A stretch of DNA of 64,000 nucleotides, from the NCBI GenBank assembly GCA_943789485.1, contig CALSUH010000008.1, forward strand, positions 62,001 to 126,000, given 5' to 3'. The DNA comes from an uncultured Pseudomonadales bacterium (GTDB lineage Bacteria > Pseudomonadota > Gammaproteobacteria > Pseudomonadales > Pseudohongiellaceae). A program made the translations under genes and the position numbers. Below are positions 11,285 through 61,583 of the stretch, piece by piece. The first letter of the stretch is position 1. Every line of letters begins with the position of its first letter. Below the pieces are notes generated by a model. The model saw only the letters and a list, made by a program, of their open reading frames with translations, had not been told where the DNA came from and did no database searches.

Positions 11285-11327
11285 TATTCAAACGTATAAA
11301 TTACCGATTGTAGTGGTCAAATACAAG
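11285..11327 (-). promoter_or_regulatory. Operator A of the recurring palindrome family, with promoter
   Basis: The core 11285-11300 (TATTCAAACGTATAAA) is the most divergent good copy. On the minus strand a TTGACC with 16-bp spacing to TATACG forms a plausible promoter for the PHM-like gene and overlaps the core. A further ATACAAG half-site lies at 11321-11327, its centre 31.5 bp from the core centre. Confidence 0.6.
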
Positions 11328-11549
11328 CATTTTCTGCGGGTATTCGAGGTGTGTGAAAAGGGGTATCTGGATAATAGCTTATTGATATTGTTGGATATAT
11401 CTAAAAATTTAGATGAGTAAAGTTTCTAGTGCTACGAAACAATCTCACTGCTTCCCGGAAGTAGGGGAGAGGGAAAAATTCTTCCCAAATGCTGCAGTGA
11501 ACAACCGCCTGTTTTGAAAGTTAACCCCAGCGAGCCCTAATTGGCGTAG

Positions 11550-12491
11550 TCAAGGCGTGACAGTGATTCGCTGGAAAACGTTTGTCCAACAGCATTGGTT
11601 GGTATTGGAACTATCAGAGGCGCCAAAATTGTCCACCTTTGCATGAATGATGTAATTGCCAGGTTCAGAAAAGTTGGCATAGACTCGGGCCAGCCCGTCT
11701 GGGCCAGGTACAGAAACTATATTAGGACCATCTTGCTTAGCGGAAACTCTGCAGCCTTGGCACAGAGGGTCTGCCCCTCTCTCGGATTTAACGACGACGA
11801 CTGTATCCGGATGGCGCGAAAATATCACCGTACCGGGACCTTGGTGCTTATTGAATGTAACACCTATAGGCAATGTCTCAGCGTAGCGAGGGTCGCTAGA
11901 ATCGCGCACAGAACTATCTTTCGTTCTTACGGTCAACATGACTTCGGATTCGACGCTCACGGAACCGGGGTAGTCGCGTATAGAAGCGAGCAGCCCTGGA
12001 GAAATATCTCTACTTTCTCCAAAACCGGCGAGTGGCTGCAGTGAGCCCTCCGGTCGTGGCAGTATGAAGTCTAACTCGTAACCCGCCCGGTCAGCTCGAC
12101 CAGGCACCCTAAGAGCATCCTGATCACCGGTTTTAAGCTTCCACCAAATCTCCGTTTCTATTTTGTCCACTGGAATAGTGACAGAAAAAACGCCGGTATG
12201 TCGGCCGGGAGAGAAATGCGTAGGTTGCATAGAGCCAAATTCAGCGGGATCTAAAAAGTTGGCGTCTCCCAATGGGATTTCAACAGCTGTCTCATTTCTA
12301 TTCAGGTAACCGAATGAAAAGCTTTTTGTCCCATCTGGGTTTGCGACCCAGCCTTCCATTATAGGAACGATTGACAGGCCTTCAGGGGGTGCCAGACTAA
12401 GGAAGCGAGGTTGTTGTGCTTGCCCTGAAACACTGATTAACATAAGAAGTGCAAGACCGACCCTGCTGAGAATTTTGCGTGATTGCTGCAT
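11550..12491 (-). CDS. Exported protein of unknown function
   Basis: I do not recognise this family. From the ATG at 12491 (GGAGA 8 nt upstream) the product has about 313 residues with a clean signal peptide (SRVGLALLMLISVSGQAQ). The mature part looks like repeated beta-sandwich strands, with several Pro/Gly-rich segments, a C-x2-C pair (PLCQGCRV) late in the protein and a Cys-Cys pair near the end (TNQCCWTN). A periplasmic binding or accessory role is possible but not shown. Operator B lies about 90 bp upstream, which ties it to the regulon. A longer in-frame start at 12533 is possible but lacks a ribosome site. Confidence 0.6.
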   Translation of the reverse strand: MQQSRKILSRVGLALLMLISVSGQAQQPRFLSLAPPEGLSIVPIMEGWVANPDGTKSFSFGYLNRNETAVEIPLGDANFLDPAEFGSMQPTHFSPGRHTGVFSVTIPVDKIETEIWWKLKTGDQDALRVPGRADRAGYELDFILPRPEGSLQPLAGFGESRDISPGLLASIRDYPGSVSVESEVMLTVRTKDSSVRDSSDPRYAETLPIGVTFNKHQGPGTVIFSRHPDTVVVVKSERGADPLCQGCRVSAKQDGPNIVSVPGPDGLARVYANFSEPGNYIIHAKVDNFGASDSSNTNQCCWTNVFQRITVTP

Positions 12492-12579
12492 TGTTGTGCT
12501 CTCCAAATTGCAGTTGCGATGGGCCTTTATCACTGTTATTAAGATTGTTTGATAATGGAATTTTGCAATTTTATTATAT

Positions 12580-12622
12580 TATTCAATTGTATAAAATAAC
12601 GCTTATGCTTGAGAATTACAAG
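12580..12622 (-). promoter_or_regulatory. Operator B of the recurring palindrome family
   Basis: The core 12580-12595 is TATTCAATTGTATAAA, identical to the copies at 31058 and 61568. On the minus strand, TTCTCA with a 16-bp spacer to TATACA would serve the unknown exported gene. A TTACAAG half-site at 12616-12622 is centred 31.5 bp away. Over about 48 bp the element closely resembles operator I at 61367, including the shared AAGCGTTATTTTATACA stretch on the minus strand. Confidence 0.7.
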
Positions 12623-12762
12623 GCTTTTATACCCGGTAATGGTAAGGAAAGTAAGGAACACGGGAGATCAAGATGCACTTACATAATACCCGGGATGTCT
12701 TCATTTCTGTATATCTGGCAGACAGTGAATTTACCCTATGCAGGGATGATCCTGAACTTCGT

Positions 12763-13428
12763 TTAGAGAAGCGACAGTCTGGATAAGCGTGCATTGCTAT
12801 AGTGTTTGGCAACCGCACTTTCGGCAATATCTGGGTCGTGTGATTCGAGGGCTTTGATAATAGATGCATGTTCATTGTAAGCATCATTGATACGCTCTGG
12901 GTTATTAAATGGCCGCCCTTGAAGTAGTCCAATTTTAACGCGTAAGCGTCCTAATGTTTGTGACAAATAATTATTATTACAGGCGTCGTACAACACCGTA
13001 TGAAATTGGTTGTCAATTTGAGAGAGTTTTTCGGGTTTATCTCTAGCCTTGTCAAACAGCGCCAAATTAGCTTTGAGCATTTCGATTTCTAAGTCTGAAA
13101 TATGCACAGCGGCGGCGCGGGCAGCAACAATTTCGAGTTCATCTCTGACATGGTAAAAACCTTCTACCCCTTCCTCTGACAATTGAGTGACGCACACTGT
13201 GCCACCTGGCAATAGTTCGAGTAATCCTTCAGTCAATAACTGGCGTATCGATTCACGAATCGGTGTGCGGCTCATACCCAGCTTTTGGGCAAGAGCAGCA
13301 AAATCGATTTCCTGCCCGGGCTTGATTTTTCGAGTCTGGATCGCATCACGGAGATAGGCTAGCGCTTGATCCGTCAGTGGCATATTTTTTTGCGTCGTTG
13401 TAGGCGCTGGCTGTTTAGACTTTGTCAT
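12763..13428 (-). CDS. GntR/FCD-family regulator, tandem copy 1
   Basis: The product of about 221 residues from MTKSK has an N-terminal winged helix with KLGMSRTPIRESIRQLLTEGLLE, the GntR DNA-reading motif. A C-terminal all-helical FCD ligand domain follows, with a metal-site pattern DNQFH and a later EHASII. FCD regulators sense small acids or amino-acid-like ligands and usually repress catabolic genes. Position 13428 is preferred because MTKSK is conserved in its tandem paralogue (13717-14388) while upstream codons are not. Its own promoter carries operator C, so it is probably autoregulated. Confidence 0.9.
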   Translation of the reverse strand: MTKSKQPAPTTTQKNMPLTDQALAYLRDAIQTRKIKPGQEIDFAALAQKLGMSRTPIRESIRQLLTEGLLELLPGGTVCVTQLSEEGVEGFYHVRDELEIVAARAAAVHISDLEIEMLKANLALFDKARDKPEKLSQIDNQFHTVLYDACNNNYLSQTLGRLRVKIGLLQGRPFNNPERINDAYNEHASIIKALESHDPDIAESAVAKHYSNARLSRLSLL

Positions 13429-13606
13429 TTTGTAGAAAGTGTCGAGAAGTTTTTTATTGTAGTGAACATAAACCGACGACACCGAGGTGTTAGGCTTAAT
13501 ACGTAGATCAGATAAGGAACAAATGGAACGCAATTCGCAAATTCATAGGGTGCCTTGCTGCGTAATACGCCCCGTAAAGCTCGTGCTAATCGTGTAATAG
13601 CAGTAC

Positions 13607-13632
13607 CTTATACAATTGAATATTATAGTCAA
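13607..13632 (-). promoter_or_regulatory. Promoter and operator C for the first tandem GntR gene
   Basis: On the minus strand TTGACT (13632-13627), a 14-bp spacer and TATAAG (13612-13607) form a promoter. The palindromic core (13607-13622, CTTATACAATTGAATA) covers the spacer and -10 box. Transcription would run about 180 bp to the start at 13428. Confidence 0.7.
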
Positions 13633-13716: not shown

Positions 13717-14388
13717 CTACTGGGCGAGGAGTGAGAGTCTGGATTTGCGTGCACTGCGATAGTGTTTGGCAACAGCTCTTTGAGCTTTTTCTGGTACACG
13801 TGATTCGAGGGCTCTAATAATAGAGGCGTGTTCCTTGTAAGCGGCAATGATGCGCTCTGGATTACTAAATGGCCTTCCCTGAAGTAGTCCAATTCTAATG
13901 CGTAAGCGTCGCAAAGTTTGTGACAAATAACTATTGTTACAAGCATCGTACAGTATCGTATGAAACTGGTTGTCAATTAGAGAGAGCTTCTCCGGATCTG
14001 CTTTTGCCTTGTCAAACAGCGCCAGATTAGCTTTGAGCATTTCTATTTCTAAGTCAGAAATATGTACTGCGGCGGCGCGGGCAGCAACAATTTCGAGTTC
14101 ATCACGAACATGATAAAAACCTTCAGTCTCTCGAGCTGACAATTCCGTGACACAGACAGTGCCGCCTGGTAACAATTCAAGTAGACCTTCAGTCAATAGC
14201 TGGCGTATCGATTCACGAATCGGTGTGCGGCTCATGCCCAGCTTCTCGGCAAGTGCAGTAAAATCAATTTCCTCGCCAGGATTGATTTTCTGCGTCTGAA
14301 TTGCATTACGCAGATAAGCCATCGCTTGATCTGTTAGTGGCGTGTTTTGCTGGGCGGTTGTAGGTTCGGATAGTTTAGATTTTGTCAT
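13717..14388 (-). CDS. GntR/FCD-family regulator, tandem copy 2
   Basis: The product of about 223 residues from MTKSK is a close paralogue of the gene just downstream; most of the helix-turn-helix and FCD domains are the same residue for residue (EKLGMSRTPIRESIRQLLTEG, DELEIVAARAAAVHISDLEI). Differences cluster in the linker and the C-terminal tail. The pair looks like a recent tandem duplication, perhaps giving regulators with different ligands on the same DNA site. Its promoter carries operator D about 330 bp upstream, and the long leader contains a terminator-like hairpin (14569-14601). Confidence 0.9.
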   Translation of the reverse strand: MTKSKLSEPTTAQQNTPLTDQAMAYLRNAIQTQKINPGEEIDFTALAEKLGMSRTPIRESIRQLLTEGLLELLPGGTVCVTELSARETEGFYHVRDELEIVAARAAAVHISDLEIEMLKANLALFDKAKADPEKLSLIDNQFHTILYDACNNSYLSQTLRRLRIRIGLLQGRPFSNPERIIAAYKEHASIIRALESRVPEKAQRAVAKHYRSARKSRLSLLAQ

Positions 14389-14568
14389 TTGGTAGAGAGT
14401 GTAAAGAATCTCTGATTGCAAGGGAAGTCCTCGATTCGTATTGAGAATCGAGTGTATATCAGGCAAAGAGACGTACGTTTCCCATCTGGTGAGAAGAGCA
14501 GGGGATGAAATCACGAGTAGGAGTTTATTGACGTCGGGGGGATGGCGGGAAGTAGCTAATTCTAAAGT

Positions 14569-14706: not shown

Positions 14707-14740
14707 ACGTTACTTTATACAAATGAATAAAAAGAGTCAA
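14687..14740 (-). promoter_or_regulatory. Promoter and operator D for the second tandem GntR gene
   Basis: On the minus strand TTGACT (14740-14735), a 15-bp spacer and TATAAA (14719-14714) form a promoter. The core 14714-14729 (TTTATACAAATGAATA) covers the spacer and -10. A CTTGAAT half-site at 14687-14693 is centred 31.5 bp from the core, matching the spacing at operators A, B, I and J. Confidence 0.7.
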
Positions 14741-14849: not shown

Positions 14850-16118
14850 TCAAGTGCTTGGTAGACCATGGTGTTGAATTTCGCCCGAATCGTCAGACTG
14901 GCTAGGACGGACCTGGGACATGAATACTGCTATCAGGTCCTCGCTTGGATCAATCCAGTAGGAAGTCAGGAAGGCGCCACTCCATGAATAGCTGCCAATC
15001 GAACCCAGCTCCCCAGCCTTCGCGGGATCAACAATGATTTCGAAGCCCAAACCGAAATCTGGGACTTGGTCGCCGTCAGAATCGATTCGAGGGCTTTGCA
15101 TGAGCTCGACCGACTTACGGCCCAATATTCTAGAGCCATCCAGTTCTCCATTGTTCAGCAGCATTTGTATAAAACGAGCGTAGTCATAGGCCGTAGAGGA
15201 TACGCCTGCGCCACCCGAGAAATAACTCTGCCCATTTCCGGCTGGGTAACGTGGGTTGTCGAGAATGATGTTGGATTCATGTCCTTGCGAGACGGTCAGT
15301 TGGTCTTCATCAACCTCGGAATAGAGAGTGGCGAGGCGGTTGAACTTGGATTCAGGTAGATAGAAATAGCTGTCGTGCATGTTCAGTGGGGTAAAAATTT
15401 CCTCGCTGAAAAATAGCTCCAGTGATTTTCCGCTGACCACTTCTATGAGGTATCCGAGCAGGTCGAGGCCGAGGCCATAAACGTAGTCTGAACCGGGTTC
15501 GAAAAGCAGAGGCTGCTGGGCCAAAAGTTCCATTTGAGCGGCGAGGGTAATGTCCTTGCTGGTCAGTCCATCGATTACACCTGCATCAACGTAAGTCTTC
15601 TGCAGGTTGTTGGAAGCAAACGGATAGCTAATTCCAGATGAGTGCGTGAACAAATCAATGATCTTGATCTGTTCTGTTGCGGGGACTGTGGCGGACACAT
15701 CACCATTAGTATCCACTTCGGAAACCACCGTCATGTCGGCAAACTCTGGAATAAATTTCGAAACTGGGTCGTTCAACTGAAATAGTCCGCGCTCATAGAG
15801 AATCATAGCTCCTACTGACGTGATTGCTTTGGTCATAGAAGCAAGGCGGAATATGTTATCTTTTTGCATCGGTGTTTGCGCATCGATATCGGCAAAACCG
15901 AAACTTTTGAAATAAGCGAGCTGGCCGTTTCTGGCTACTAGTGCAACCGCGCCAGGGATCTTACCTTTGGCAATTTCGGCGTTGATTACCGAATCGATTC
16001 GACCCAGGCGTTCCTGCGAGAAGCCAGCGCTATCGAGCGGATCAGATTCTGTAAATTGCGCCCATGCGGTATTGCTTGCAAGGATTAACAGGACAGTGAC
16101 TAAAGCTGCTTTTCTCAT
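14850..16118 (-). CDS. Exported serine hydrolase, beta-lactamase class C family
   Basis: The product of about 422 residues starts at 16118, where GGAGA lies just upstream and a signal peptide follows (ALVTVLLILASNTAWAQ). The active-site tetrad SMTK (SxxK, in FRLASMTKAITS) and the surrounding helix mark the class C/esterase/DD-peptidase superfamily; the usual YxN is represented by a YVYGLGL segment. Such proteins are more often esterases, amidases or peptidases than antibiotic-resistance enzymes. It is periplasmic by its signal peptide. It sits among oxidases of the putative regulon but has no operator directly in front of it. Confidence 0.8.
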   Translation of the reverse strand: MRKAALVTVLLILASNTAWAQFTESDPLDSAGFSQERLGRIDSVINAEIAKGKIPGAVALVARNGQLAYFKSFGFADIDAQTPMQKDNIFRLASMTKAITSVGAMILYERGLFQLNDPVSKFIPEFADMTVVSEVDTNGDVSATVPATEQIKIIDLFTHSSGISYPFASNNLQKTYVDAGVIDGLTSKDITLAAQMELLAQQPLLFEPGSDYVYGLGLDLLGYLIEVVSGKSLELFFSEEIFTPLNMHDSYFYLPESKFNRLATLYSEVDEDQLTVSQGHESNIILDNPRYPAGNGQSYFSGGAGVSSTAYDYARFIQMLLNNGELDGSRILGRKSVELMQSPRIDSDGDQVPDFGLGFEIIVDPAKAGELGSIGSYSWSGAFLTSYWIDPSEDLIAVFMSQVRPSQSDDSGEIQHHGLPST

Positions 16119-16259
16119 TTTTTCTCCATGAAGTGATTCTTCAGGCTTGGGCATCTTTTAAAATTTAAGTCGGAGAATAATGAGCCATACACTTTCTGCT
16201 AAGCAGGCAAAAGAGGGCAATATTCTAGGACTAGCTCGCTCTTCAATCTAGATGAAGTG

Positions 16260-17450
16260 TTACGGAATTAGGCGCGGAACGAAACGGGTCATCCCTTTAA
16301 ATACACCTACATCCCCGGCATAAATATTGCCGTCTTTGTCGGCAGTAACACCTTCACCCATAGCGCCTACTCCACCCATACCGGACGGGCGAATTGTGGA
16401 GACGTGTTCGGGTATGAAATACAGCACTTCGCCGTTGCGGGCATTGCCAACACGAAGCCCCTTTCTCCAACCGCCCGGGTTGTAGTTTTCATCAGATTCA
16501 GAATCAATGGCGTACAGTAAGTCATTACTAGGGTCTATGTGGATGCCTGAAATTCGACTAAACTGGTACCAGGTGTCTAACCACTGTCCGTCTTGGGTAA
16601 AGATTTGAATACGATTGTTTCCGCGATCTGCAACAAATAAGCGGCCCTGGGAATCCATAGCAAGACCGTGTGGTGATCGAAACTGTCCATCATCCCAACC
16701 ATATTCCCCGAAGTGACCTATATAAGTGCCGTCGGGCTCCCACATGGTTATCCGGCTTTTTGTATCAGGGCCAGGTTCATTCTGAAACTGAGCGGTGTGG
16801 GTTTCAGCGATATAGATACGCCCATTAGGAGCGATCAACACATCGTTTGGATCAGTAAGATGAGTAGGTGGATCGCCTATCTCGCCGGGCGTACCGATAG
16901 TCATCAGCAGTTCACCGTCAGCACTAAATTTTAATATTGCACTGCCTAGATTCGCCGCAGCAGGGTTTTCGTTAATTTCTTCGATTCTCGCAACGCGGGA
17001 ATCAGCAATCCAGACATTGCCTTCGTGATCCACATCTATGCCATGTGGCCAAAGAATTTGGCCGGCACCGAATTGCTTAACCACACGTCCATTCGGGTCG
17101 AGTTTAACAATAGGGTTAATATTCGGCGTCGTGGCACATTGGTTATCACCGCAACGGTCTCCTGCCCACACGTGAACGCCGTCGATATCGATATCTACAG
17201 CGCTGACAGAACCCCAACGACGCCCATCTGGCAAAGAACCAAAATTGCGCTGGGTGACATAGGGGTTAGGTAAATTATTAATCGCTCGCTGACCCGCATG
17301 TGCGACTGGCTGCCCAGTCTCAGCCATTGAACCGTCCGTCTGTGCCATGGGGTTCGATTGAGCGATTAGTCCAGCAGACGACAACGAAAATAGTAGTCCC
17401 ACCAATCCAGTTTTTATAAGGGCCTCTAAACAGTCGATATTATTACGCAT
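16260..17450 (-). CDS. Exported NHL-repeat propeller, PAL-like
   Basis: From the ATG at 17450 (GGAGA upstream) the product has about 396 residues, a signal segment (TGLVGLLFSLSSAGLIAQ) and at least four NHL-type strands. Examples are WPHGIDVDHEGNVWIADSR, PNDVLIAPNGRIYIAETH and FRSPHGLAMDSQGRLFVADR. This is the six-bladed propeller found in peptidyl-alpha-hydroxyglycine amidating lyase (PAL), which splits the PHM product to an amide and glyoxylate. The two PHG histidines could be metal ligands as in PAL, but no catalytic assignment can be made by eye. Its nearness to a PHM homologue is suggestive. Operator E lies 210 bp upstream. Confidence 0.7.
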   Translation of the reverse strand: MRNNIDCLEALIKTGLVGLLFSLSSAGLIAQSNPMAQTDGSMAETGQPVAHAGQRAINNLPNPYVTQRNFGSLPDGRRWGSVSAVDIDIDGVHVWAGDRCGDNQCATTPNINPIVKLDPNGRVVKQFGAGQILWPHGIDVDHEGNVWIADSRVARIEEINENPAAANLGSAILKFSADGELLMTIGTPGEIGDPPTHLTDPNDVLIAPNGRIYIAETHTAQFQNEPGPDTKSRITMWEPDGTYIGHFGEYGWDDGQFRSPHGLAMDSQGRLFVADRGNNRIQIFTQDGQWLDTWYQFSRISGIHIDPSNDLLYAIDSESDENYNPGGWRKGLRVGNARNGEVLYFIPEHVSTIRPSGMGGVGAMGEGVTADKDGNIYAGDVGVFKGMTRFVPRLIP

Positions 17451-17756
17451 CTGTCTCTCCTGATTTCTATGATTATGAACAAACACGACCAGCGCTAATT
17501 CTAGTCGGCTTTTCTGTTGTGACTACTGCAGGCGGCTATTGTTGTCGGTCATATTTTCATCAATATTCCATGTTAGGGGACACAATGATGATTCGCCAGT
17601 ACGCCTTCCAAGACTATGGGTCCAAACTGCAGTATAAATAGTCTTGTACATTTCCGCGAGTTAATTATACAATTGAATAAAAATCTATGTCCATCTCAAA
17701 TGCCGACGAAACTCGGGTAGTTCTATCAAAGTGTTTATTGATTAAGAGACAAAGCC
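17451..17756. other. Divergent intergenic region with operator E
   Basis: This 306-bp gap separates the minus-strand NHL gene from the plus-strand exported protein. Apart from operator E (17643-17679) it holds no recognisable gene. A shared bidirectional control region is likely because both genes start here. Confidence 0.55.
17643..17679. promoter_or_regulatory. Operator E in a divergent promoter region
   Basis: The core 17664-17679 reads ATTATACAATTGAATA. On the minus strand TGGACA with an 18-bp spacer leads to TATAAT for the NHL gene. A CTTGTAC half-site at 17643-17649 lies only about 25 bp from the core centre, shorter than at the other sites. The plus-strand gene at 17757 may share it. 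Confidence 0.65.
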
Positions 17757-18779
17757 ATGAAAACCAATATGAGTCGAATTCCGCATTACATGCTCTGCAT
17801 ATTTACTCTCGTTACGGGTAGCGCCGCGTGTGCTCAAACGGGCTACGAGGTTCCTCGAACCAGCGATGGACAGCCCGATATCCAAGGCGTGTGGGCAAAT
17901 AACACTGTTACTCCTGTGCAGCGACCGGATTTATTCGAAGGCAGGGAGTTTCTCACCGCAGAAGAAATGCAAATTATTTCGCAGCGGGCAGGCGAAATTA
18001 CGGCAGAGACCGATGACGCTCTATTTGGCGAATCTGTGATTACATCAGCCTTGTCAGGAGATACTGGATCCAATGATCCTACTACGGGTAACTACGACCA
18101 GTTCTGGTTGGCGGAGCGGAGTATACATAATCGCACGTCCCAGATTATTGACCCACCAAATGGCAAATATCCTGCACTTACCGAGGAGGGCAAAGCGAGA
18201 CGTGAGCGGATGGCCCAGTTGAGAAATAATTCCGCTGCCGCCGGCGAGCGATTTGAAACCCTCGACTCTTATGCGACGCTGAGCCAAGATGACCGTTGCA
18301 TCACTAACGGCGCACCCTATCTGGATTCTGGATATAACAGCTACTGGCAAATCGTGCAGTCCAAGGATTACGTCGTAATCGTACAGGAAATGATGCATGA
18401 CGCCCGCATCATTCCCCTCACCGACATGCCCCATGCGCCGGAGGCTATCGAGCTTTTGCATGGCGATTCGCGTGGCTACTGGGACGGCGACACGCTGGTG
18501 GTGGAAACGCGCAACTTTTCTGATAGGAGTGAACTTAGCCACAACCGTGCGGAGTTAAATGTTGAACGCATTACTCGAATCGGCGTTGGACAGTTGCGTT
18601 ATCAACTCACTTCGAACGATCCGGGTACTTACTCTGCCCCTTACACTAGGGAAATTGTCTTCGACTATTCAGACGGAGATATATACGAGTTTGCCTGTCA
18701 TGAGGGTAATTATGCGCTGCCTAATATGTTACAAGGTGCGCGCGAAGAGGAACGCCGAGCTGCCGCCGGCGAAAATTAA
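17757..18779 (+). CDS. Exported protein of an unnamed family (paralogue at 26177)
   Basis: The 340-residue product has a signal peptide ending at ACAQTG. It opens with the marker RTSDGQPDIQGVWANNT and contains SRGYWDGDTLVVETRNFSD late in the chain. I know this pattern only as a recurring unannotated periplasmic family; no enzyme activity is established. It has a single late cysteine in EFACHEGNY. The gene starts a plus-strand pair with the PHM-like lipoprotein 45 bp downstream, and operator E is about 80 bp upstream. It may be a binding or folding partner for the oxidases, but that is a guess from position. Confidence 0.6.
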   Translation: MKTNMSRIPHYMLCIFTLVTGSAACAQTGYEVPRTSDGQPDIQGVWANNTVTPVQRPDLFEGREFLTAEEMQIISQRAGEITAETDDALFGESVITSALSGDTGSNDPTTGNYDQFWLAERSIHNRTSQIIDPPNGKYPALTEEGKARRERMAQLRNNSAAAGERFETLDSYATLSQDDRCITNGAPYLDSGYNSYWQIVQSKDYVVIVQEMMHDARIIPLTDMPHAPEAIELLHGDSRGYWDGDTLVVETRNFSDRSELSHNRAELNVERITRIGVGQLRYQLTSNDPGTYSAPYTREIVFDYSDGDIYEFACHEGNYALPNMLQGAREEERRAAAGEN

Positions 18780-18824
18780 TCTACACAGTGACCTGATTAA
18801 GCTAACTAGCAGAGGGAGGAAAAC

Positions 18825-20687
18825 ATGTTTGCGACACAGCCATTTCTTGCCGCTCTAGTCATCTCTCTCTTTCTGGCCGGATGTGCAACTTCTGCTGATA
18901 TCCGCACCGAAAAAAGCTTTGACAACTCCAATTCTGGAGTTACCAATCCCGTGGTAGCCAACCCTCTTGTTGGCATCCATAGGCATGATGAGACTCTAGT
19001 GCTGCAAGTCGAAGGCGCAGCATCTGGCGAGTCTTTGGACCGTCTCTCAACTCCCCAGTTGACGCCCGCTTGGCAACTAGGTGAGCCTGATTTAATCGTG
19101 ACGTTGCGGGCGCCGTATTCGCTCCCGCTGCAGGACTCCGACGTATTCCGCAATTTCGTTATTCCGAATGTAACTGCTTCGGATCGTTATGTGCGAGCGC
19201 TCGAGTTTAGGTCAGGCAATCACAAAGTCGTTCATCATGCCGAGTTTCGACTCGACGAGTCTGACGCCTCGTGGCAACGCGATACCGAGGAACCCGAAGT
19301 TGGTTTCGGCGGCATGGATAACCCAACAGCACGCTACCCCGACGGTCATTTCGTTAATTGGGTCCCCGGCAAGCGAATTTCCGAGCTGACTGAAGGGCAT
19401 GCCTGGCGACTCCCGGCCAAGGCTGATCTAGTAGTTCAGCTGCACATGATGCCGTCGGGTTTCGAGGAGGTCATCGATCCTCAGATCGGACTCTACTTTA
19501 CCGACGAGCCCCCCAAGCAGAATCCGCAAATGATTTGGCTAGGCTCGCGCTGGCTACCTATTGCTGCAGGTGACACCGACTTTATGATTCGCGACAGCTA
19601 CGAGCTGCCCCATGATGTCGATGTTCTGAGCGTTCTGCCGCACTGCCACTTCATCTGCAAGGGCATCAAGGCGTGGGCCATGCTTCCGGACGGTAGTCAG
19701 CAGTGGCTCGCGCGGGTTGAGGATTGGGATTTTTACAGGCAGAGCGAATCACGTTTTAAGCAACCACTCAGTCTGCCGCGTGGGACGACAGTGTCCGTGG
19801 AATTTTCCTACGACAACTCCGCCGATAATGAGCGTAATCCTAATAGCCCGCCCCAAGACATCGAGTTCGGCCCTCTGTCATCGAATGAGATGGCAGACTT
19901 GTGGATCCAGGTCATGCCCAAGAAAGAAAGCGAGAGTGAGATTCTAAAACGTTTCTCCGCGCGCCACTTGCGGGAGAGGATAATTGAACGTCAGGAACGG
20001 ATCGTTGAGATCGATCCCGAGAACACCGTGGTACTGGAGAGTCTTGCCATCGCGCTGACGGATCTGGGGCGACTCGATGAAGCGCTCAATCACTGGCGGC
20101 GTTGGGTTCAACTCGCTCCGAACGATTCGCGTGCACATCTCAATCTCGGTACGGCTCTTGGTTTCTCGAATCAGGTTGCAGCAGCGGCATCACATTTGAA
20201 ACGCTCAACGGAATTGGATCCCGGCTTTGCGCCGGCATTCTTTCGTCTAGGCCGCGCACAGTCCTACCTAGGTCGTTTCGACGATGCATTGTTAAGTTTT
20301 CGTGCCGCATTGGCACTCAGTCCTAATGAGTACATGGTCCTCCACGCCACAGCGCGTTTACTGGCAAGTCATCCGGAGCAGGACAAGCGTAGAGCAGACG
20401 AGGCCCTAGAAATGGCTAATCGAGCGCTGGAACAGCTCGCTAAACCCGACGCCATGTCACTAAGTACGCTAGCTATGGCTCAAGCCGCTGCAGGTGGCTT
20501 TGAACTGGCGGCAACAACCGCGAGGCTAGCTTTGAACAGCGTCTCACCCGATGACAGACCGTTAGATTTAATCATTAAGCGCCAGGTAGACAATTACGAG
20601 CAGGGAGAAATCGAGGTAATGAGGGCAGCGGGAGTAAAACAGTTTGTGGCTCCCAACCAAAGGCACGCTGTTAGGCGTGGGAAGTGA
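18825..20687 (+). CDS. PHM-like copper monooxygenase homologue with TPR tail, lipoprotein
   Basis: The 620-residue product has a lipobox LAGC at 17-20, so it is probably membrane-anchored on the periplasmic side. The PHM-like part spans about 85-370. Candidate copper ligands are in order: His137-His138 (KVVHHAE), His207 (QLHMMPSG), His273/His275 (PHCHFICKG) and Met356 (NEMADLW). Unlike the homologue at 9914, no CxxCH domain precedes it; the N-terminal 80 residues are low-complexity. Residues from about 390 on form at least four TPR-like repeats (ALTDLGRLDEALNHWRRWVQ, SYLGRFDDALLSFRAALALS), suggesting a docking role. The GGGAGG before the ATG is strong. Confidence 0.72.
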   Translation: MFATQPFLAALVISLFLAGCATSADIRTEKSFDNSNSGVTNPVVANPLVGIHRHDETLVLQVEGAASGESLDRLSTPQLTPAWQLGEPDLIVTLRAPYSLPLQDSDVFRNFVIPNVTASDRYVRALEFRSGNHKVVHHAEFRLDESDASWQRDTEEPEVGFGGMDNPTARYPDGHFVNWVPGKRISELTEGHAWRLPAKADLVVQLHMMPSGFEEVIDPQIGLYFTDEPPKQNPQMIWLGSRWLPIAAGDTDFMIRDSYELPHDVDVLSVLPHCHFICKGIKAWAMLPDGSQQWLARVEDWDFYRQSESRFKQPLSLPRGTTVSVEFSYDNSADNERNPNSPPQDIEFGPLSSNEMADLWIQVMPKKESESEILKRFSARHLRERIIERQERIVEIDPENTVVLESLAIALTDLGRLDEALNHWRRWVQLAPNDSRAHLNLGTALGFSNQVAAAASHLKRSTELDPGFAPAFFRLGRAQSYLGRFDDALLSFRAALALSPNEYMVLHATARLLASHPEQDKRRADEALEMANRALEQLAKPDAMSLSTLAMAQAAAGGFELAATTARLALNSVSPDDRPLDLIIKRQVDNYEQGEIEVMRAAGVKQFVAPNQRHAVRRGK

Positions 20688-26995: not shown

Positions 26996-27100
26996 GTCGG
27001 CTTCCATCGTTGTTATTCTAGTCAAGGCGGCCAAACAGCGACCAGATTCTAACCGCATTAGTCATTTGCATAATAAGGTTTTGAGAATGTGCATGTTTAT

Positions 27101-42331: not shown

Positions 42332-42376
42332 AGAGCAAGATTCTCCATTTTCGAATTTAGTAAAAAGAGGCTAGCA

Positions 42377-43456: not shown

Positions 43457-43493
43457 TTCCTAGATTTGGCAGGAGAATTGACAGGTGCATGAC

Positions 43494-47281: not shown

Positions 47282-47291
47282 TGTGAGAACT

Positions 47292-48869: not shown

Positions 48870-49024
48870 TAAACCTCGCTAAATGATTTTCTCCATATTG
48901 TTTGCTAGAAAACAGAATGCTATTTTTTTCAATGTGCCCCAGTGTTGTTCAATTCATAAACAGATCTATTCTCGCGGCAAGTAAATTAATTGTGACGGAC
49001 GAAGCAAAAAATGGAGCTATTAGA

Positions 49025-51031
49025 ATGATTGTCATGCAACAAAATTTTCATAAACGCTTTTTAGAAACGGTAAGTTCGGCCGCGTTCACCGCGCGGGCAG
49101 TAGGGGGTCTATTTTTCTCTACTTCCTTGACGGCTTTTGCACAGAACGGGAGTAGTGATGGCGAGTGGCCTAGTTATGCTGCCGATGCTGGCTCCACTAA
49201 GTATACGAGTCTCAGTCAAATCAATGCCGACAACTTTGCTGAGCTTGATATTGCCTGGCGTTGGTCTTCCATTGATGCTGAATTGGACTTTGAAGCACTG
49301 TTGGGTCCAGATGCAGATATTAGCTTCGGTCGGTTGCAGGCAACTCCGCTGATGGTTGATGGTGTGATCTATATGCTTACCGCTTTGAATCAAGTTGCTG
49401 CGTTGGATGCGGCCAGCGGAGAAATGTTGTGGTCACATGACCCAGAGGTCTACATGTCCGGTGAGCCAATCAGCCCATTGGGTTTTCATCATCGAGGCGT
49501 CGCTTGGTGGGGTGATGGCGAAAAGTCGAGAATTTTAGTCACGACCAACGATGGGTACATTATTTCATTGGTGGCGGAAACCGGTGAGGTCGATCCTGCT
49601 TTTGGTGGTGGCCGCGTGGATATGACAGACGGCATTCCCAGAGCCGATCGAGATTCTCTCGACTATTCGGGCGCACAACCAGTAGGTGCAGTGTCACCGC
49701 CTATAGTGGTAGGTGAAATATTGGTAGTTCAACAAATCACTTCAAACCGGCCCCACTATAAAGAGCGGCCTCCTACATGGGTGCGAGGTTACAACATCCA
49801 TTCTGGGGAATTGGTTTGGACTTTTCACACAATTCCACAGGGTGGTGAGTTCGGCGTTGAAACTTGGCAGGAAGGCTCTTGGCGCTATACCGGTAACGGA
49901 GGCGTTTGGACTCAGATGAGTGCCGATCTCGAATTGGGCTATGTCTATCTACCAACGGAAGCGCCAACGAATGATTTTTATGGTGGACATCGCCCAGGCG
50001 ACAATTTGTTTACTCAAAGTGTTGTTGCCCTAGATGCCAGCACCGGTGATCGAGTTTGGCATTTCCAGATGATTCACCATGGTATTTGGGATTACGATAC
50101 TCCAGCAGCACCGAACTTGATTGATATTAATGTTGATGGAAGAGAAATTAGGGCCCTTGCTCAAGTTACTAAGCAGGGATTTACTTATGTATTCGACCGG
50201 GCGACCGGGGTTCCTGTGTGGCCAATTATTGAACGCGCAGTGTCTCAAGGATTAATCCCAGGGGAGCGAACATCACTTACTCAGCCTTTTCCGACTAAGC
50301 CTCCGCCCTTTGTTGTGCAAGGCTTAACAGAAGATGACCTCATCGATTTCACTCCGCAGTTACGAGCCGAAGCTCTAGAAATCTTAGAAGATTACACCTA
50401 CGGTCCTTTATTTACTCCAACGAGTTTACCCGACGACGATGGTCATCGAGGTACCATTATGGTCCCAGGTGCTGGCGGCGGTGCTAATTGGGAGGGCGCG
50501 GGAGTAGATCCTGATAACAATATTTTGTTTGTTCCTGGATCTAATAATGCTTTCTTACCTTTCATGGGTACACTGCCGGAAGATGAATCAGATCTCCGTT
50601 ATTATCGTTTGCAAAATCGAGGAGTTCTGGGGCCGCGCCGCTTACCTTTATTAAAGCCGCCTTATTCCACTATTACTGCGTATGACATGAATCGCGGAGA
50701 GATTCTTTGGCAGGTAGCTAATGGCGATGGGATGACTCAAGTTGAAAACAACCCTGCCTTAGAAGGAATCGATTTACCTCCGCTAGGCGGTGGAGGCAGA
50801 CATCCGGTGTTGGTGACATCCGCACTCTTAGTGCATGCGCAAAACACAGGCGACGGGACGAAATTGATCGCGCGAAATAAATTGACTGGACAGGAAATCG
50901 CGGCAATTGATCTTCCTGGTAATCCCAACGCAGCGCCGATGAGTTTCTCTGTTGATGGTAGGCAATACATCGCAGTAGCTGTTAGCGGACAGCCTGCACC
51001 AGAACTTATTGTTTATGCATTGCCGAAATGA
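49025..51031 (+). CDS. PQQ-type quinoprotein dehydrogenase, exported
   Basis: The product of about 668 residues starts at 49025, where GGAG lies 8 nt upstream; a longer frame from 48902 lacks this. After a signal segment (VGGLFFSTSLTAFAQ) come PQQ-propeller repeats, starting WPSYAADAGSTKYTSLSQIN with later VAALDAASGEMLWSHDPE and VVALDASTGDRVWHFQMI. It is of the soluble/membrane-edge glucose-dehydrogenase-like type; no CxxCH is present, so electrons must leave to a separate carrier such as one of the c-heme proteins. The alcohol or aldehyde substrate is unknown. No pqq synthesis genes were found in the window. Confidence 0.82.
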   Translation: MIVMQQNFHKRFLETVSSAAFTARAVGGLFFSTSLTAFAQNGSSDGEWPSYAADAGSTKYTSLSQINADNFAELDIAWRWSSIDAELDFEALLGPDADISFGRLQATPLMVDGVIYMLTALNQVAALDAASGEMLWSHDPEVYMSGEPISPLGFHHRGVAWWGDGEKSRILVTTNDGYIISLVAETGEVDPAFGGGRVDMTDGIPRADRDSLDYSGAQPVGAVSPPIVVGEILVVQQITSNRPHYKERPPTWVRGYNIHSGELVWTFHTIPQGGEFGVETWQEGSWRYTGNGGVWTQMSADLELGYVYLPTEAPTNDFYGGHRPGDNLFTQSVVALDASTGDRVWHFQMIHHGIWDYDTPAAPNLIDINVDGREIRALAQVTKQGFTYVFDRATGVPVWPIIERAVSQGLIPGERTSLTQPFPTKPPPFVVQGLTEDDLIDFTPQLRAEALEILEDYTYGPLFTPTSLPDDDGHRGTIMVPGAGGGANWEGAGVDPDNNILFVPGSNNAFLPFMGTLPEDESDLRYYRLQNRGVLGPRRLPLLKPPYSTITAYDMNRGEILWQVANGDGMTQVENNPALEGIDLPPLGGGGRHPVLVTSALLVHAQNTGDGTKLIARNKLTGQEIAAIDLPGNPNAAPMSFSVDGRQYIAVAVSGQPAPELIVYALPK

Positions 51032-51608: not shown

Positions 51609-51909
51609 GTGTCCTTTAGGCCTTGAAAGCTAGGTATGAGCGCCAGCGTAAGTAGGCTGTAGCCAATTAGTTGTTCTCTTACGTCACTTCTTAGTTTCTC
51701 CAGGAAAAGATTTTTGAAAATCTGTCAGTATTCGCCTTGACGATTATTATTCATTTGTATAAATTGACGCATAGTCGCATGCTATGGAAATAATCAAATG
51801 AGATTATTTTCAATGGAAGCAGACGTTTAGAAAAAAGCTCTATTCAATCGCCTGAGATTCACTATCGAGGCATAAAGCTAGTTCATCGGACACTAACAAA
51901 GGTCACGCC
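51609..51909. other. 301-bp gap holding operator H
   Basis: The gap before the aldolase contains an AT-rich palindrome (51708-51723, arms AGATTTT and AAAATCT) and the promoter/operator H (51737-51763). Nothing else is recognised in it. Confidence 0.6.
51737..51763 (+). promoter_or_regulatory. Promoter and operator H for the exported aldolase
   Basis: TTGACG (51737-51742), a 15-bp spacer and TATAAA (51758-51763) form the promoter. The core 51748-51763 is TATTCATTTGTATAAA, one base from the consensus. The gene starts about 150 bp downstream. Confidence 0.7.
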
Positions 51910-52746
51910 ATGCAACATAACAAGAACACCTTTTTCTGGTCGATCGGTATCGCAGTCGCTATAGGCATGATGGTCGCGCCGCTGTCCTCCGCGCAGCAGG
52001 GGTCGAGTGGCCGCCTAAACAAAATCATCGAGCAATTCGAGAATGGTGAGCCGTCCCTGGTGGGCGAGCATTGGCAGCTTAATGACCTCGAACACAACGG
52101 CTTCCAGCTCGATGAATTCGAGTCATTCCTTAACGGAATCGAAAACGAAGGTGCATCGAGACCGGGATTGACCCCTGTTGTGCGTATCCCTTACGAAGCA
52201 AGCCAGGATTATGGTCATTACGTCAAGCAGATGCTCGACGTTGGGGCGATGGGAATCATCTTGCCGCAAGTGAAGACTCCGGCCGATATCACTAAGCTCG
52301 TCCAAGCGATGCGCTATCCGCCGCAGCGTGGTTCTGAGTACCCTGAACCGGCGGGCCAGCGAGGCTGGGGACCGAGCGCCGCTATCCGGGTCTGGAACGT
52401 GGACGGGCAGGAATATGCTAGCAAGGCGGATCTATGGCCGCTTAACCCGAATGGCGAGTTACTGGCAATCGCCATGGTAGAGACCCGAGAAATAGTCGAC
52501 AACATCGACTCTATTCTTCAGGTGCCTGGTTTGGGTGGTTTGTTGATCGGCCCAGCCGATCTAAGCTTGGCGCTAGGCGTCGGGAATCCGGGGCCGAACT
52601 CTAGCGCACCTGAGGTGCTAGAGGCGATCGCGAAAGTCGGGGCCGCATGCAAGCGGCACAACGCACTGTGCGGCATCTATATGCGTTCGGATGTCGAAGA
52701 GCGGCAGGAGCAAGGATTTATGCTGTTTCCGAGCATAGCCTACTAA
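51910..52746 (+). CDS. Exported HpcH/HpaI-type aldolase homologue
   Basis: The 278-residue product has an N-terminal signal segment (FFWSIGIAVAIGMMVAPLSSAQQ) before the aldolase fold, though HpcH/HpaI enzymes are normally cytosolic. Active-site residues are kept: Asp59-x2-His62 (LNDLEHNGF), Arg92 (PVVRIPY), Gln120 (IILPQVKT), Glu191 (AMVETRE) and Asp217 (GPADLS). The Glu-Asp gap of 26 residues matches E. coli HpaI. The usual C-terminal helix seems short, ending QGFMLFPSIAY. The coding sequence is more GC-rich than its neighbours. Class II aldolases here split 4-hydroxy-2-oxo acids to pyruvate and an aldehyde; with a signal peptide it would act in the periplasm. Operator H precedes it. Confidence 0.78.
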   Translation: MQHNKNTFFWSIGIAVAIGMMVAPLSSAQQGSSGRLNKIIEQFENGEPSLVGEHWQLNDLEHNGFQLDEFESFLNGIENEGASRPGLTPVVRIPYEASQDYGHYVKQMLDVGAMGIILPQVKTPADITKLVQAMRYPPQRGSEYPEPAGQRGWGPSAAIRVWNVDGQEYASKADLWPLNPNGELLAIAMVETREIVDNIDSILQVPGLGGLLIGPADLSLALGVGNPGPNSSAPEVLEAIAKVGAACKRHNALCGIYMRSDVEERQEQGFMLFPSIAY

Positions 52747-59174: not shown

Positions 59175-60848
59175 CTAAGCTTCTCCCGGCAGTCTAATAG
59201 TCTCAACCAATTCCTGTACATCGTCGGGTGGATCTGGAGTAAATTTAGATATCGCATAGGCAAAGCACAAGTTTACGAGAGTACCAAGTGTGCCAATACC
59301 TTCGGGTGAAATTCCGAATAACCAGTTGTTAGCTGTGCTCGCCGCCGGATTAAGAAGCTTGAAGTAAATTATGTATGAAGCCGTAAAAATAAAGCCGGCC
59401 ATCATGCCCGAAATTGCACCCTGTTTATTCATCTTCTTCTGAAATATGCCTAATACAATGGCTGGGAAGAAGGACGCCGCCGCGAGACCGAAGGCGAAGG
59501 CAACAACTTGCGCCACGTAGGCAGGTGGATTCATGCCGACATATCCCGCAATCAGCACTGCGACTAAGATAGATAGCCGTGCGGATAGCAATTCCTGTTT
59601 CTCGGTAATCGAGGGCATGAAGGTGCGTTTGAGCATGTCGTGTGCCACCGAAGTCGAGATCACCAGCAATAACCCGGCCGCTGTGGACAGGGCGGCGGCA
59701 AGGGCTCCGGCGGTAACCAGCGCGACTACCCAATTTGGCAGGCCGGCAATTTCTGGGTTTGCCATTACCATGATATCCGCACTTACCGTCAGCTCGTTGC
59801 GCTCGGCATCGCCTAGATATTGAATCTTACCGTCATTGTTTTTGTCATCGAAACTGATCAGGTTGGTGGTTTCCCATTTGCCAAACCAATCTGGCATAGC
59901 GCTATATTCCGCATTGCTAACGGAATTGATTAGATTGGTTCGAGCAAACGCCGCTACAGTCGGCGCTGTGGTATACAGTATTGCGATGAAAATCATGGCA
60001 TACCCGGCAGATCTGCGAGCATCGCGTACATTCGGCACGGTAAAGAAACGAATGATAACGTGGGGCAGTCCAGCCGTTCCGAACATAAGGGCCGCCGTTA
60101 TGAAAAAGACGTCCTGTGTGCTGCGCTGTCCTTCGGTGTAAGTGGCAAAACCTAGCTCTTGGCTGAGCCCGTCGAGCCGATCGAGTAAATAACCACTGCC
60201 GTCTACTAATTCCGAACCGAAGCCAATTTGCGGTATTACCTGTCCGGTCATCATGATGGAGATAAAGATGGCAGGGACCATGAAAGCGAATATGAGTACG
60301 CAGTACTGAGCGACCTGAGTGTAAGTGATCCCCTTCATGCCACCAAGCACGGCATAAAAGAAAACAATTGCCATGCCGATGATTACGCCGGTGGTAACGT
60401 CTACCTCGAGAAATCGAGAAAACACGATGCCCGCGCCCTGCATCTGCCCACACACATAAATAAATGAAATGACGATGGCGCAGAACACAGCCACCAGCCT
60501 TGCGCTCTGGGAATAATAACGATCACCAATGAAATCGGGGACGGTGAACTTGCCAAATTTGCGTAGATAAGGTGCGAGCAGTAATGCAAGCAGCACATAG
60601 CCCCCAGTCCAGCCCATTAAATAAAAGGTTCCATCCCTACCGAGGAAAGAGATGAGTCCAGTCATACTGATGAAAGAAGCGGCTGACATCCAGTCGGCGG
60701 CTGTGGCCATACCGTTCGCAACAGGGTGAACTCCACCTCCTGCCACATAAAACTCTTTGGTGGATCCGGCGCGCGACCAAATAGCAATGCCTATGTAGAG
60801 GCCAAAGGACAGGAATACAAACAGGTAAGTCCACATCTGAACGCTCAT
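59175..60848 (-). CDS. Sodium:solute symporter, VC2705/ActP-like subfamily
   Basis: The 557-residue inner-membrane protein has about thirteen hydrophobic helices and the SSS motifs WSRAGSTKEFYVAGGGVHPV, ATAADWMSAASFISMTGLIS and GLAAASFFPAIVLGIF. The partner DUF4212 gene just upstream, overlapping by 4 bp, marks the VC2705 subfamily (probable acetate or other monocarboxylate uptake). A loop between helices reads DDKNNDGKIQYLGDAE, like an EF-hand calcium loop. It has GGGAGAAG before the ATG. With acs next door, acetate import is the likely job. Confidence 0.88.
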   Translation of the reverse strand: MSVQMWTYLFVFLSFGLYIGIAIWSRAGSTKEFYVAGGGVHPVANGMATAADWMSAASFISMTGLISFLGRDGTFYLMGWTGGYVLLALLLAPYLRKFGKFTVPDFIGDRYYSQSARLVAVFCAIVISFIYVCGQMQGAGIVFSRFLEVDVTTGVIIGMAIVFFYAVLGGMKGITYTQVAQYCVLIFAFMVPAIFISIMMTGQVIPQIGFGSELVDGSGYLLDRLDGLSQELGFATYTEGQRSTQDVFFITAALMFGTAGLPHVIIRFFTVPNVRDARRSAGYAMIFIAILYTTAPTVAAFARTNLINSVSNAEYSAMPDWFGKWETTNLISFDDKNNDGKIQYLGDAERNELTVSADIMVMANPEIAGLPNWVVALVTAGALAAALSTAAGLLLVISTSVAHDMLKRTFMPSITEKQELLSARLSILVAVLIAGYVGMNPPAYVAQVVAFAFGLAAASFFPAIVLGIFQKKMNKQGAISGMMAGFIFTASYIIYFKLLNPAASTANNWLFGISPEGIGTLGTLVNLCFAYAISKFTPDPPDDVQELVETIRLPGEA

Positions 60849-61126
60849 TTTACTTCTCCCTCGGTATCGTTGCTGGAGGCCTGTTTGTATTGACTATCAA
60901 GCTTGTCCATTTCGCGGATGTAAATAAGAATGAGAGCGATGAAGGTCAGGATAGATCCTTGCTGGGCAATCCAGAAGCCGAGTTTAAAACCTTTGAGGCG
61001 AATAGTGTCCAAGACATCGACCAGCAGAATCCCACAAACAAAGGAAACAAAAAACCAGACGCAGAGCAGTGAAAGCACTAATTTTATATTGGCTTTCCAG
61101 TAGGAATTGGCACTGGTATTGGGCAT
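60845..61126 (-). CDS. DUF4212 partner of the sodium symporter
   Basis: The 93-residue product has two helices (LVLSLLCVWFFVSFVCGILL and GSILTFIALILIYI) and a charged tail, as in the TIGR03647-type partner of VC2705 symporters. It overlaps the symporter start by 4 bp and has AGAGG 6 nt before its ATG. It probably helps assemble or regulate the carrier. Confidence 0.9.
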   Translation of the reverse strand: MPNTSANSYWKANIKLVLSLLCVWFFVSFVCGILLVDVLDTIRLKGFKLGFWIAQQGSILTFIALILIYIREMDKLDSQYKQASSNDTEGEVK

Positions 61127-61153
61127 GGCTAACCTCTTTTCGTTGATATTAAT

Positions 61154-61360
61154 TCAGGCCAATTCATGGGGCTGAAAGTAGGGTAAATATTTAATGGTGC
61201 TGAGCAGTGCTCCCGATAAGGCGCTGGCAACGAGGACCGTGAAGATCAGCGCTGTGGTAGAGCTCTGGCGGCTTTTCTCTATGATTTTGATGGAGGTGCC
61301 CTGTATGTCTAGGACTCTCCATTGAAATACGCGCTTGAGGATCGGGATGAACAGCTTCAA
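61154..61360 (-). CDS. Possible small membrane protein upstream of the symporter pair
   Basis: A 68-residue frame from a TTG at 61360 has one strong hydrophobic helix (ALIFTVLVASALSGALLSTI). It lies 27 bp before the DUF4212 gene, suggesting an operon. The TTG lacks a ribosome site and sits only 6 bp from the core of operator I, so it would need a nearly leaderless mRNA. It may be chance. Confidence 0.4.
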   Translation of the reverse strand: MKLFIPILKRVFQWRVLDIQGTSIKIIEKSRQSSTTALIFTVLVASALSGALLSTIKYLPYFQPHELA

Positions 61361-61366
61361 CTAGTA

Positions 61367-61409
61367 TATACAAATGTATAAAATAACGCTTATACGTGAT
61401 GAGCACAAG
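61367..61409 (-). promoter_or_regulatory. Operator I near the symporter genes
   Basis: The core 61367-61382 reads TATACAAATGTATAAA and is the most symmetric copy. A CACAAG half-site at 61404-61409 is centred about 31.5 bp away. The surrounding 48 bp on the minus strand closely match operator B at 12580. It may serve the symporter operon or the TonB receptor. Confidence 0.65.
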
Positions 61410-61536
61410 GTTTTTTATGGCCTGTATTTGCTAGCGCGAAGCTGTCTTTATTGAAAATGAGAGAAATAGCTATCGAACGGGCAAACAAAGATGAATACGG
61501 GTCAAGCATTTACCCAAAAATTGTTTCTCAATTAAA

Positions 61537-61583
61537 TATTCATTTGTATAAAAGTCTTGCATCTCCATATTCAATTGTATAAA
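61537..61583 (+). promoter_or_regulatory. Tandem operators K and L with promoter for the TonB receptor
   Basis: Core K is at 61537-61552 (TATTCATTTGTATAAA) and core L at 61568-61583 (TATTCAATTGTATAAA); their centres are 31 bp apart, the same as the core-to-half-site spacing elsewhere. TTGCAT (61557-61562), a 15-bp spacer and TATAAA (61578-61583) form the promoter over core L, 130 bp before the ATG at 61713. Confidence 0.75.

What the first reader, a model, noticed from the sequence alone, without database searches (positions are those of the whole stretch)
11285..61583. Twelve copies of one palindromic operator link oxidases, transporters and regulators into a putative regulon
A 16-bp element, consensus TATTCAATTGTATAAA, was read at twelve intergenic places: 11285, 12580, 13607, 14714, 17664, 28469, 31058, 39972, 51748, 61367, 61537 and 61568. 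None lies within a gene. At five of them (13607, 14714, 31058, 51748, 61568) it overlaps the spacer and -10 of a TTGAC-like promoter with 14-15 bp spacing, which suits a repressor. It stands before PHM-like and NHL genes, a FAD oxidase, the hyu operon, an exported aldolase, the symporter, the TonB receptor and both tandem GntR genes. That both GntR genes carry it suggests they are autoregulated and bind it. I do not know a described regulon with this gene content.
Basis: partly seen in the sequence, partly recalled or inferred. Interest (0 to 1): 0.88.

Follow-up and report, generated by a model that had tools for sequence, protein, structure and literature searches.

The report
Local regulon with unusual operator
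A short near-palindromic DNA switch is repeated in front of about a dozen neighbouring operons in an uncultured bacterium and at matching places in several relatives, which suggests that one regulator, perhaps a pair of twin repressors, controls a whole unexplored degradation pathway.

Summary
A matrix built from relatives alone ranks these twelve highest. At seven orthologous promoter regions the site is 93-100% conserved, its surroundings 46-77%. All 8 of 137 family genomes with a GntR1 orthologue carry 3-17 copies; 2 of the other 129 carry three or more. In its own genome 17 of 24 matches lie within 53 kb. A further strong site lies just past the window, before a paralogous PHM-NHL-PQQ cassette. 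The element is tied to promoters in both directions: where the target gene is unambiguous, a TTG -35 box lies 16-17 bp from a -10 at the element's right edge in 24 of 27 forward cases, and at 17 bp on the other strand in 21 of 31 backward cases. That geometry suits a repressor.

GntR1/GntR2 are the best candidate binders (12 of 14 genes directly behind a site). Against this, the half-sites are everted (ACA-NN-TGT) compared with the published FadR-subfamily order, GntR3 co-occurs almost equally, and two genomes keep sites without a detected orthologue. Binding and substrate are untested.

The parts
11285..11300 (+). operator; opposite-strand TTGTAT at 17 bp, towards PHM1 (9914-11260 -)
12580..12595 (+). 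operator; opposite-strand TTGTAA at 17 bp, towards 11550-12533 (-)
   Evidence: site columns 1.00 conserved in 7 aligned regions
13607..13622 (-). operator in the GntR1 promoter (TTGACT, 16 bp)
14714..14729 (-). operator in the GntR2 promoter (TTGACT, 17 bp)
17664..17679 (-). operator between NHL1 (-) and 17757-18779 (+); no TTG box at 16-17 bp
28469..28484 (+). operator between FAD oxidase (-) and GntR3 (+); TTGAAG at 17 bp towards the oxidase only
31028..31043 (+). degenerate second operator, 30 bp upstream of 31058; four of six aligned relatives have it with 1-2 mismatches, two lack it
31058..31073 (+). operator between ALDH (-) and the hyu operon (+); TTGACT at 17 bp forward, TTGTAT at 17 bp backward
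39972..39987 (-). weakest of the twelve; before 40046-42331 (+); no TTG box at 16-17 bp
51748..51763 (+). operator in the promoter (TTGACG, 17 bp) of exported HpcH-like aldolase 51910-52746
61367..61382 (+). operator before 61154-61360, DUF4212 and SSS symporter (-); TTGTGC at 17 bp on the opposite strand
61537..61552 (+). upstream operator of the TonB receptor; 31 bp from the next, 170 bp from 61367; no TTG box of its own
61568..61583 (+). operator at the TonB receptor promoter (TTGCAT, 17 bp)
12763..13533 (-). GntR1, GntR + FCD domains; best candidate regulator
13717..14514 (-). GntR2, tandem paralogue of GntR1 (79% identical over residues 26-256 of GntR1)
28736..29422 (+). GntR3, third FCD GntR, 31% identical to GntR1; rival candidate
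9914..11260 (-). target: PHM1, exported protein with a CxxCH motif; PHM-like by eye only
11550..12533 (-). target: protein without a Pfam family
14850..17486 (-). target: NHL beta-propeller 16260-17486 and, if one operon, beta-lactamase-family gene 14850-16154
17757..20687 (+). target: 17757-18779 (no Pfam family) and, if one operon, 18825-20687 (TPR; PHM-like by eye)
26177..28456 (-). target: FAD oxidase (DAO) and, if one operon, 26177-27058
29441..30880 (-). target: aldehyde dehydrogenase
31178..38352 (+). target: HyuB, HyuA, TPP enzyme, SDR, class IV aminotransferase (operon assumed)
40046..51031 (+). target: 40046-42331, glyoxalase-like, DUF1592-type, DUF1552, ankyrin-like (by eye), PQQ dehydrogenase (operon assumed)
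51910..52746 (+). target: exported HpcH/HpaI-family aldolase
59175..61126 (-). target: VC_2705-family sodium/solute symporter and DUF4212 protein
61713..64000 (+). target: TonB-dependent receptor (runs past the window)

Best explanation
The element is the operator of a local, self-regulated repressor circuit. Tandem FCD-type GntR proteins GntR1 and GntR2 bind TATTCA-NN-TGTATA as dimers. The right edge of the operator (AAAwTTA) doubles as the -10 box of a sigma-70-type promoter on either strand, so a bound repressor blocks RNA polymerase at about a dozen promoters, those of its own genes included. A still unknown small molecule, perhaps a carboxylate or another pathway intermediate, would release it and switch on uptake (TonB receptor, sodium symporter), periplasmic oxidation (PHM-like, NHL, PQQ, DUF1592/DUF1552 proteins) and cytoplasmic steps (FAD oxidase, ALDH, HyuAB, TPP enzyme, aminotransferase) together. 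Paired sites at 30-31 bp (hyu, TonB) suggest cooperative binding. Shown: sites, conservation, promoter geometry, co-occurrence. Inferred: identity of the binder, repression, ligand, operon extents, pathway.
For: Sites exact and far above chance. Footprints: in seven orthologous regions nine sites have column conservation 0.93-1.00 against 0.46-0.77 outside. Promoter geometry: of 27 sites with a forward gene only, 19 have TTG at 17 bp and 5 at 16; of 31 with a backward gene only, 21 have TTG on the other strand at 17 bp; no other spacer from 10 to 23 bp exceeds 5 and 3 on the strand in question. Co-occurrence: 8 of 8 GntR1 genomes have 3 or more copies, 2 of 129 others do (Fisher p 1.8e-11, not corrected for kinship). 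12 of 14 GntR1/2 genes lie directly behind a site with TTGACT or TTGACA at 16-17 bp; one begins 160 bp from a contig end and one follows the FAD oxidase, which has a site. The recognition segment MSRTPIRES(I/V)R is the same in 14 of 14 GntR1/2 proteins, and the TTGT box fits the published TKGT half-site.
Against: Half-sites are in everted order: 0 of 108 sites hold TKGT-N2/3-ACMA. G122 and G154 carry 5 and 4 matches with no GntR1 or GntR3 orthologue at 1e-40; they are 90% and 87% complete, so absence is not proof. GntR3 co-occurs in 7 of the 8. An AraC-type gene lies in the window cluster. Three of the twelve window sites have no TTG box at 16-17 bp. No binding or expression data exist.
Confidence: 0.62

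Rival explanations
1. GntR3 (28736-29422), not GntR1/2, binds the element, or all three share it.
For: Orthologues (E 1e-40 or better) in 7 of the 8 GntR1 genomes and in none of the other 129; same SRTPIRE segment; a site lies between it and the FAD oxidase in 7 of 7 genomes where both neighbours were seen on one stretch. The one GntR1 genome without it, G150, has a contig that ends just where GntR3 would begin (C358, 3,018 bp, site at 2759), so its absence may be an assembly gap.
Against: The site centre stands 17-74 bp from the matched start of the oxidase and 213-310 bp from that of GntR3; 7 of 9 such sites have TTG at 17 bp towards the oxidase, 1 of 8 a forward TTG (at 16 bp) towards GntR3. 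No second conserved canonical operator was seen before GntR3, which cuts both ways.
Confidence: 0.17
2. A regulator of another family, encoded elsewhere in these genomes, binds it; the GntR genes are merely targets.
For: Everted half-site order unlike the published GntR operators seen; sites without GntR1 in G122 and G154.
Against: It would have to track GntR1 across 8 of 137 genomes. Other regulators in the relatives were not looked for systematically: only window proteins were used as queries. The AraC gene at 38701 has no match in the fetched stretches of G140; the rest of that genome was not searched for it.
Confidence: 0.17
3. The element is only a promoter type (for example of an alternative sigma factor) or a dispersed repeat.
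For: It overlaps likely -10 boxes and is intergenic in the window.
Against: Near-palindromic, read in both directions relative to genes, joined to ordinary TTGACW boxes; 17 of 24 genome matches in 53 kb of 3.67 Mb; flanks diverge between orthologues while the core stays.
Confidence: 0.04

Closest known systems
FCD-domain (VanR group) GntR repressors of catabolic clusters, e.g. Atu1419 of Agrobacterium fabrum (PMC7797058, passages read)
   Same: GntR + FCD domains; short palindrome overlapping the -10 or lying between -10 and -35; autoregulation; two sites far apart (190 bp there, 170 bp here at TonB).
   Different: Operator there is ATGTATACAT (convergent TGTA/TACA); here TATACA-NN-TGTATA (everted). 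It represses its own gene and two others; here about a dozen promoters.
FadR-subfamily regulons (PMC4494728, passages and outline read)
   Same: Regulators near their targets, autoregulation, divergons with one site or double sites.
   Different: Consensus TKGT-N2/3-ACMA; exceptions named in the passages are direct repeats (NanR, NagQ, FarR) and BioR (TTATMKATAA); no everted one in the passages seen.
GntR1/GntR2 of Corynebacterium glutamicum (PMC2230225, search listing with start of abstract only)
   Same: Two functionally redundant GntR-type regulators over one set of genes.
   Different: Gluconate and glucose genes; unrelated organism; subfamily and operator not compared here.

Membership tests
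FCD (FadR-subfamily) GntR regulators: GntR1, GntR2, GntR3 | GntR winged-helix domain plus FCD domain above curated cut-offs | tested here: met
   PF00392 45.8-58.6 bits (cut-off 27) and PF07729 85.7-92.6 bits (cut-off 24.3)
FCD (FadR-subfamily) GntR regulators: GntR1, GntR2, GntR3 | recognition helix with conserved Arg-Thr and Arg DNA contacts | tested here: met
   SRTPIRE in 21 of 21 aligned proteins; contacts described for Atu1419 in PMC7797058; residue-by-residue alignment to Atu1419 not made
FadR-subfamily GntR regulon | operator TKGT-N2/3-ACMA | tested here: not met
   0 of 108 sites; the TTGT half-site is present but everted
FadR-subfamily GntR regulon | autoregulation: operator in the promoter of the regulator gene | tested here: met
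   12 of 14 GntR1/2 genes by position
FadR-subfamily GntR regulon | sites co-occur with the regulator across genomes | tested here: met
   3 or more copies in 8 of 8 with GntR1, 2 of 129 without; exceptions G122, G154
FadR-subfamily GntR regulon | the protein binds the operator and an effector releases it | not testable with these tools
   needs gel shift or footprinting

The most novel reading that the evidence does not exclude
A clade of FCD-type GntR repressors that reads its usual half-site in everted order (ACA-NN-TGT) and has fused this operator to a -10 box usable in both directions, so that one cassette represses whichever strand carries the -35; it governs a clade-specific periplasmic oxidation pathway of a still unknown substrate, with DNA looping between sites 170 bp apart at the symporter/TonB divergon.
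Probability: 0.35. Interest if true: 0.65.

Novelty: new variant of a known kind. Interest (0 to 1): 0.5.

Why it matters
If the operons are as drawn, it ties between 25 and 30 genes, many without any known function (DUF1592/DUF1552 proteins, PHM-like, NHL and PQQ proteins), into one switch, so that their common substrate can be looked for by asking what releases the repressor. If GntR1/2 bind it, the everted half-site order would add an operator geometry to a family of regulators with a well-studied code.

Tried and rejected
AlphaFold models of PHM1 and of 17757-18779 were poor (mean pLDDT 44.9 and 34.8). A PDB fold search with the PHM1 model gave nothing at E 0.001 or better; human dopamine beta-hydroxylase (a PHM relative by recall) came 12th at E 0.0091. 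So 'PHM-like' remains a reading by eye; Pfam gave only weak cytochrome c hits, and a PDB sequence search one hit at E 0.65.

A look for a separate canonical operator of GntR3 found none in seven regions. A dispersed repeat and a sigma-factor promoter were considered and held unlikely (see rivals).

Literature searches (listings only unless said): no paper held DUF1592, DUF1552 and 'dehydrogenase' together; four held at least one of DUF1592, DUF1588, DUF1552. Three operator strings of 14, 12 and 10 bases were searched with GntR and FCD, two terms required; they had no occurrence in the 15 papers listed of 47, and a paper with one string alone would not have been counted. GntR with 'everted' gave two papers, on efflux pumps by title. 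GntR, hydantoinase, TonB-dependent, regulon, PQQ (four of five) gave three papers unrelated by title. Searches on FadR-subfamily motifs, one guessed family name and bacterial PHM showed nothing on this regulon in their listings.

Limits. The core of the 108-site matrix is conserved partly by construction (sites chosen at up to 2 mismatches); the flanking promoter signals are not. Nine fetched stretches with one isolated match each (G027 C30 and C73, G122 C68, G150 C58, G140 C10, G070 C70, G138 C40, G142 C83, G121 C9) were left out of the 108; nine of the 108 come from G122 and G154. The own genome was scanned with a pattern only; the matrix was run on the window and on fetched stretches. Footprints against the rule: the second hyu site is hardly better conserved (0.69) than its surroundings (0.66), absent in two of seven; NHL1-17757 gave 0.69 against 0.38 and PHM1-11550 0.47 against 0.16 because paralogous cassettes without a site there were mixed in; GntR1-BLA had two sequences and was skipped.
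Full report
Observation. All twelve copies are at the stated positions. With up to three mismatches the consensus gives 18 rows on both strands where shuffles give 0.70 on average and at most 4. No copy touches a gene, although genes cover 90% of the window. A matrix built from 96 sites of relatives places the twelve at the top of the window, scores 20.9 to 34.2, where 0.10 rows per 64 kb are expected at 15 or more.

Extent. In the own genome (3.67 Mb, 32 contigs, 83.8% complete) 24 rows match at up to two mismatches; 17 lie between C8:73285 and C8:126558, seven on other contigs, against three for the reversed pattern. One of the seven (C6:76315) has only one mismatch. Of these seven, six score 12.8-16.0 by the matrix and one (C13) below 11; another place on one of these stretches scores 16.7. 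A further strong site (28.6) lies just beyond the window, at 64544-64558, followed by a cassette of paralogues of PHM1, 11550-12533, 17757-18779, NHL1 and PQQ at 34-50% identity. The same cassette, in some cases cut by a contig end, follows TonB with a site in G028, G145, G148, G150 and G154. A degenerate copy at 31028 stands 30 bp before 31058; four of six aligned relatives have it with one or two mismatches, two lack it. A very weak copy at 27059 scores 11.0.

Conservation. GntR1 orthologues (E 1e-40 or better) are in 8 of 137 genomes of the family; in a sample of 390 genomes of the order only two, both among those eight. The pattern at up to one mismatch occurs 3 to 17 times in each of the eight (80 in all), and 28 times in the other 129 genomes together, of which G122 has five and G154 four; the reversed control occurs seven times in all 137 (my sums). 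In six contigs fetched by the GntR1 protein alone, 21 sites were present. In seven aligned orthologous regions nine sites show 0.93-1.00 conservation against 0.46-0.77 outside. Three results are weaker: the second hyu site 0.69 against 0.66; NHL1-17757 0.69 against 0.38 and PHM1-11550 0.47 against 0.16, the last two with paralogous cassettes mixed in.

Structure of the element. In 108 sites (12 window, 96 relatives) the core is T-A-T-T-C-A, two variable bases, T-G-T-A-T-A-A-A, with a frequent T two bases on (86 of 108). The core letters are conserved partly because sites were chosen by them. The two middle bases vary (AT 58, TT 17, AA 15, TA 7, others 11). The left half has T at its fourth base in 97 of 108, where a perfect palindrome would have A, so the palindrome is systematically imperfect.

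Promoter geometry. Sites were sorted by neighbouring genes within 450 bp. Where a gene follows only in the direction of the element (27), TTG stands 17 bp before the TAAATT position in 19 and 16 bp in five. Where a gene lies only behind it (31), TTG stands on the other strand at 17 bp in 21. Where genes lie on both sides (45), 14 have the forward box (16-17 bp) and 20 the backward one (17 bp); five sites have neither neighbour. Matches of four or more to TTGACA: 50 of 108 forward against 46 of 324 at control offsets; 27 of 108 backward against 61 of 432; the backward box is often TTGTAT, so this count understates it. In the window 9 of 12 sites have a TTG box on one strand or both; 17664, 39972 and 61537 do not. 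So the AAAwTTA edge can serve as -10 in either direction. An operator over the -10 suits a repressor.

Who binds. GntR1 and GntR2 are tandem FCD GntR paralogues; of 14 such genes in eight genomes, 12 have a site with TTGACT or TTGACA at 16-17 bp before them, one begins 160 bp from a contig end and one follows the FAD oxidase. Their recognition segment is invariant but for one I/V. GntR3 occurs in seven of the same genomes, but its nearby site goes with the promoter of the FAD oxidase. Its absence from G150 may be an assembly gap, since the contig ends there. The published FadR-subfamily operator is TKGT-N2/3-ACMA, with NanR, NagQ, FarR and BioR as exceptions (PMC4494728, passages). Here the TTGT boxes are in reverse order, and no site of 108 has the canonical form. 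G122 and G154 have sites but no orthologue found; their matches to GntR1 are 29-32% identical. I give GntR1/2 62%, GntR3 alone or shared 17%, another family 17%, no regulator site 4%.

Paired sites. At TonB two sites lie 30-31 bp apart with a third 169-172 bp off in seven of nine TonB regions with sites; G148 has three sites at 43 and 33 bp and G140 one. Before hyu a pair at 30 bp occurs in four of six relatives and, degenerate, here. Atu1419, an FCD GntR tetramer, was seen to loop DNA between sites 190 bp apart (PMC7797058, passages). Looping here is inference.

Pathway. Target genes are listed under parts; operons are assumed from gene order. NHL1 matches the PAL domain of peptidylglycine amidating monooxygenase (3fvz, E 9.7e-14), but generic NHL propellers such as those of Thin and TRIM71 score far better (E down to 3.8e-44), so this is a weak hint. 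PHM1 is called PHM-like by eye; no test confirmed it. The symporter is of the VC_2705 family with a DUF4212 partner. The substrate is unknown; a small organic acid or nitrogen compound would fit the symporter, HyuAB, aminotransferase and FAD oxidase, but this is a guess.

Verdict. Real and well supported as a regulon; the regulator is likely but untested; a new variant of a known kind because of the everted, promoter-fused operator.

Noticed in passing
window 5946-7577 and 22960-24576: Two phosphoenolpyruvate carboxykinase-like genes (named by eye) in one window; the second also lies inside the regulon region in G027, G028, G145 and G148.
   Followed up: no
L026:820-7513 (just right of the window): Second cassette of PHM-like, two unknown families, NHL and PQQ genes, paralogous to window genes, with its own operator; paralogues of these genes recur many times in G140.
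   Followed up: partly
L025:11480-13822 (left of the window): Distant paralogues (26-28%) of PHM1 and 11550-12533; no matrix hit of 11 or more on that stretch.
   Followed up: no
L142 and L143 (G154): The PHM-like and 40046-type genes match in separate pieces, as in decaying genes or assembly errors, while operators beside them match well.
   Followed up: no
window 16260-17486: NHL protein with a secondary match to the PAL lyase domain, beside PHM-like genes: possibly a bacterial counterpart of the amidating-enzyme pair; weak.
   Followed up: partly
L132-L134 (G140 C19): G140 has the most copies (17 at up to one mismatch), some before paralogues not in the window's own set.
   Followed up: no
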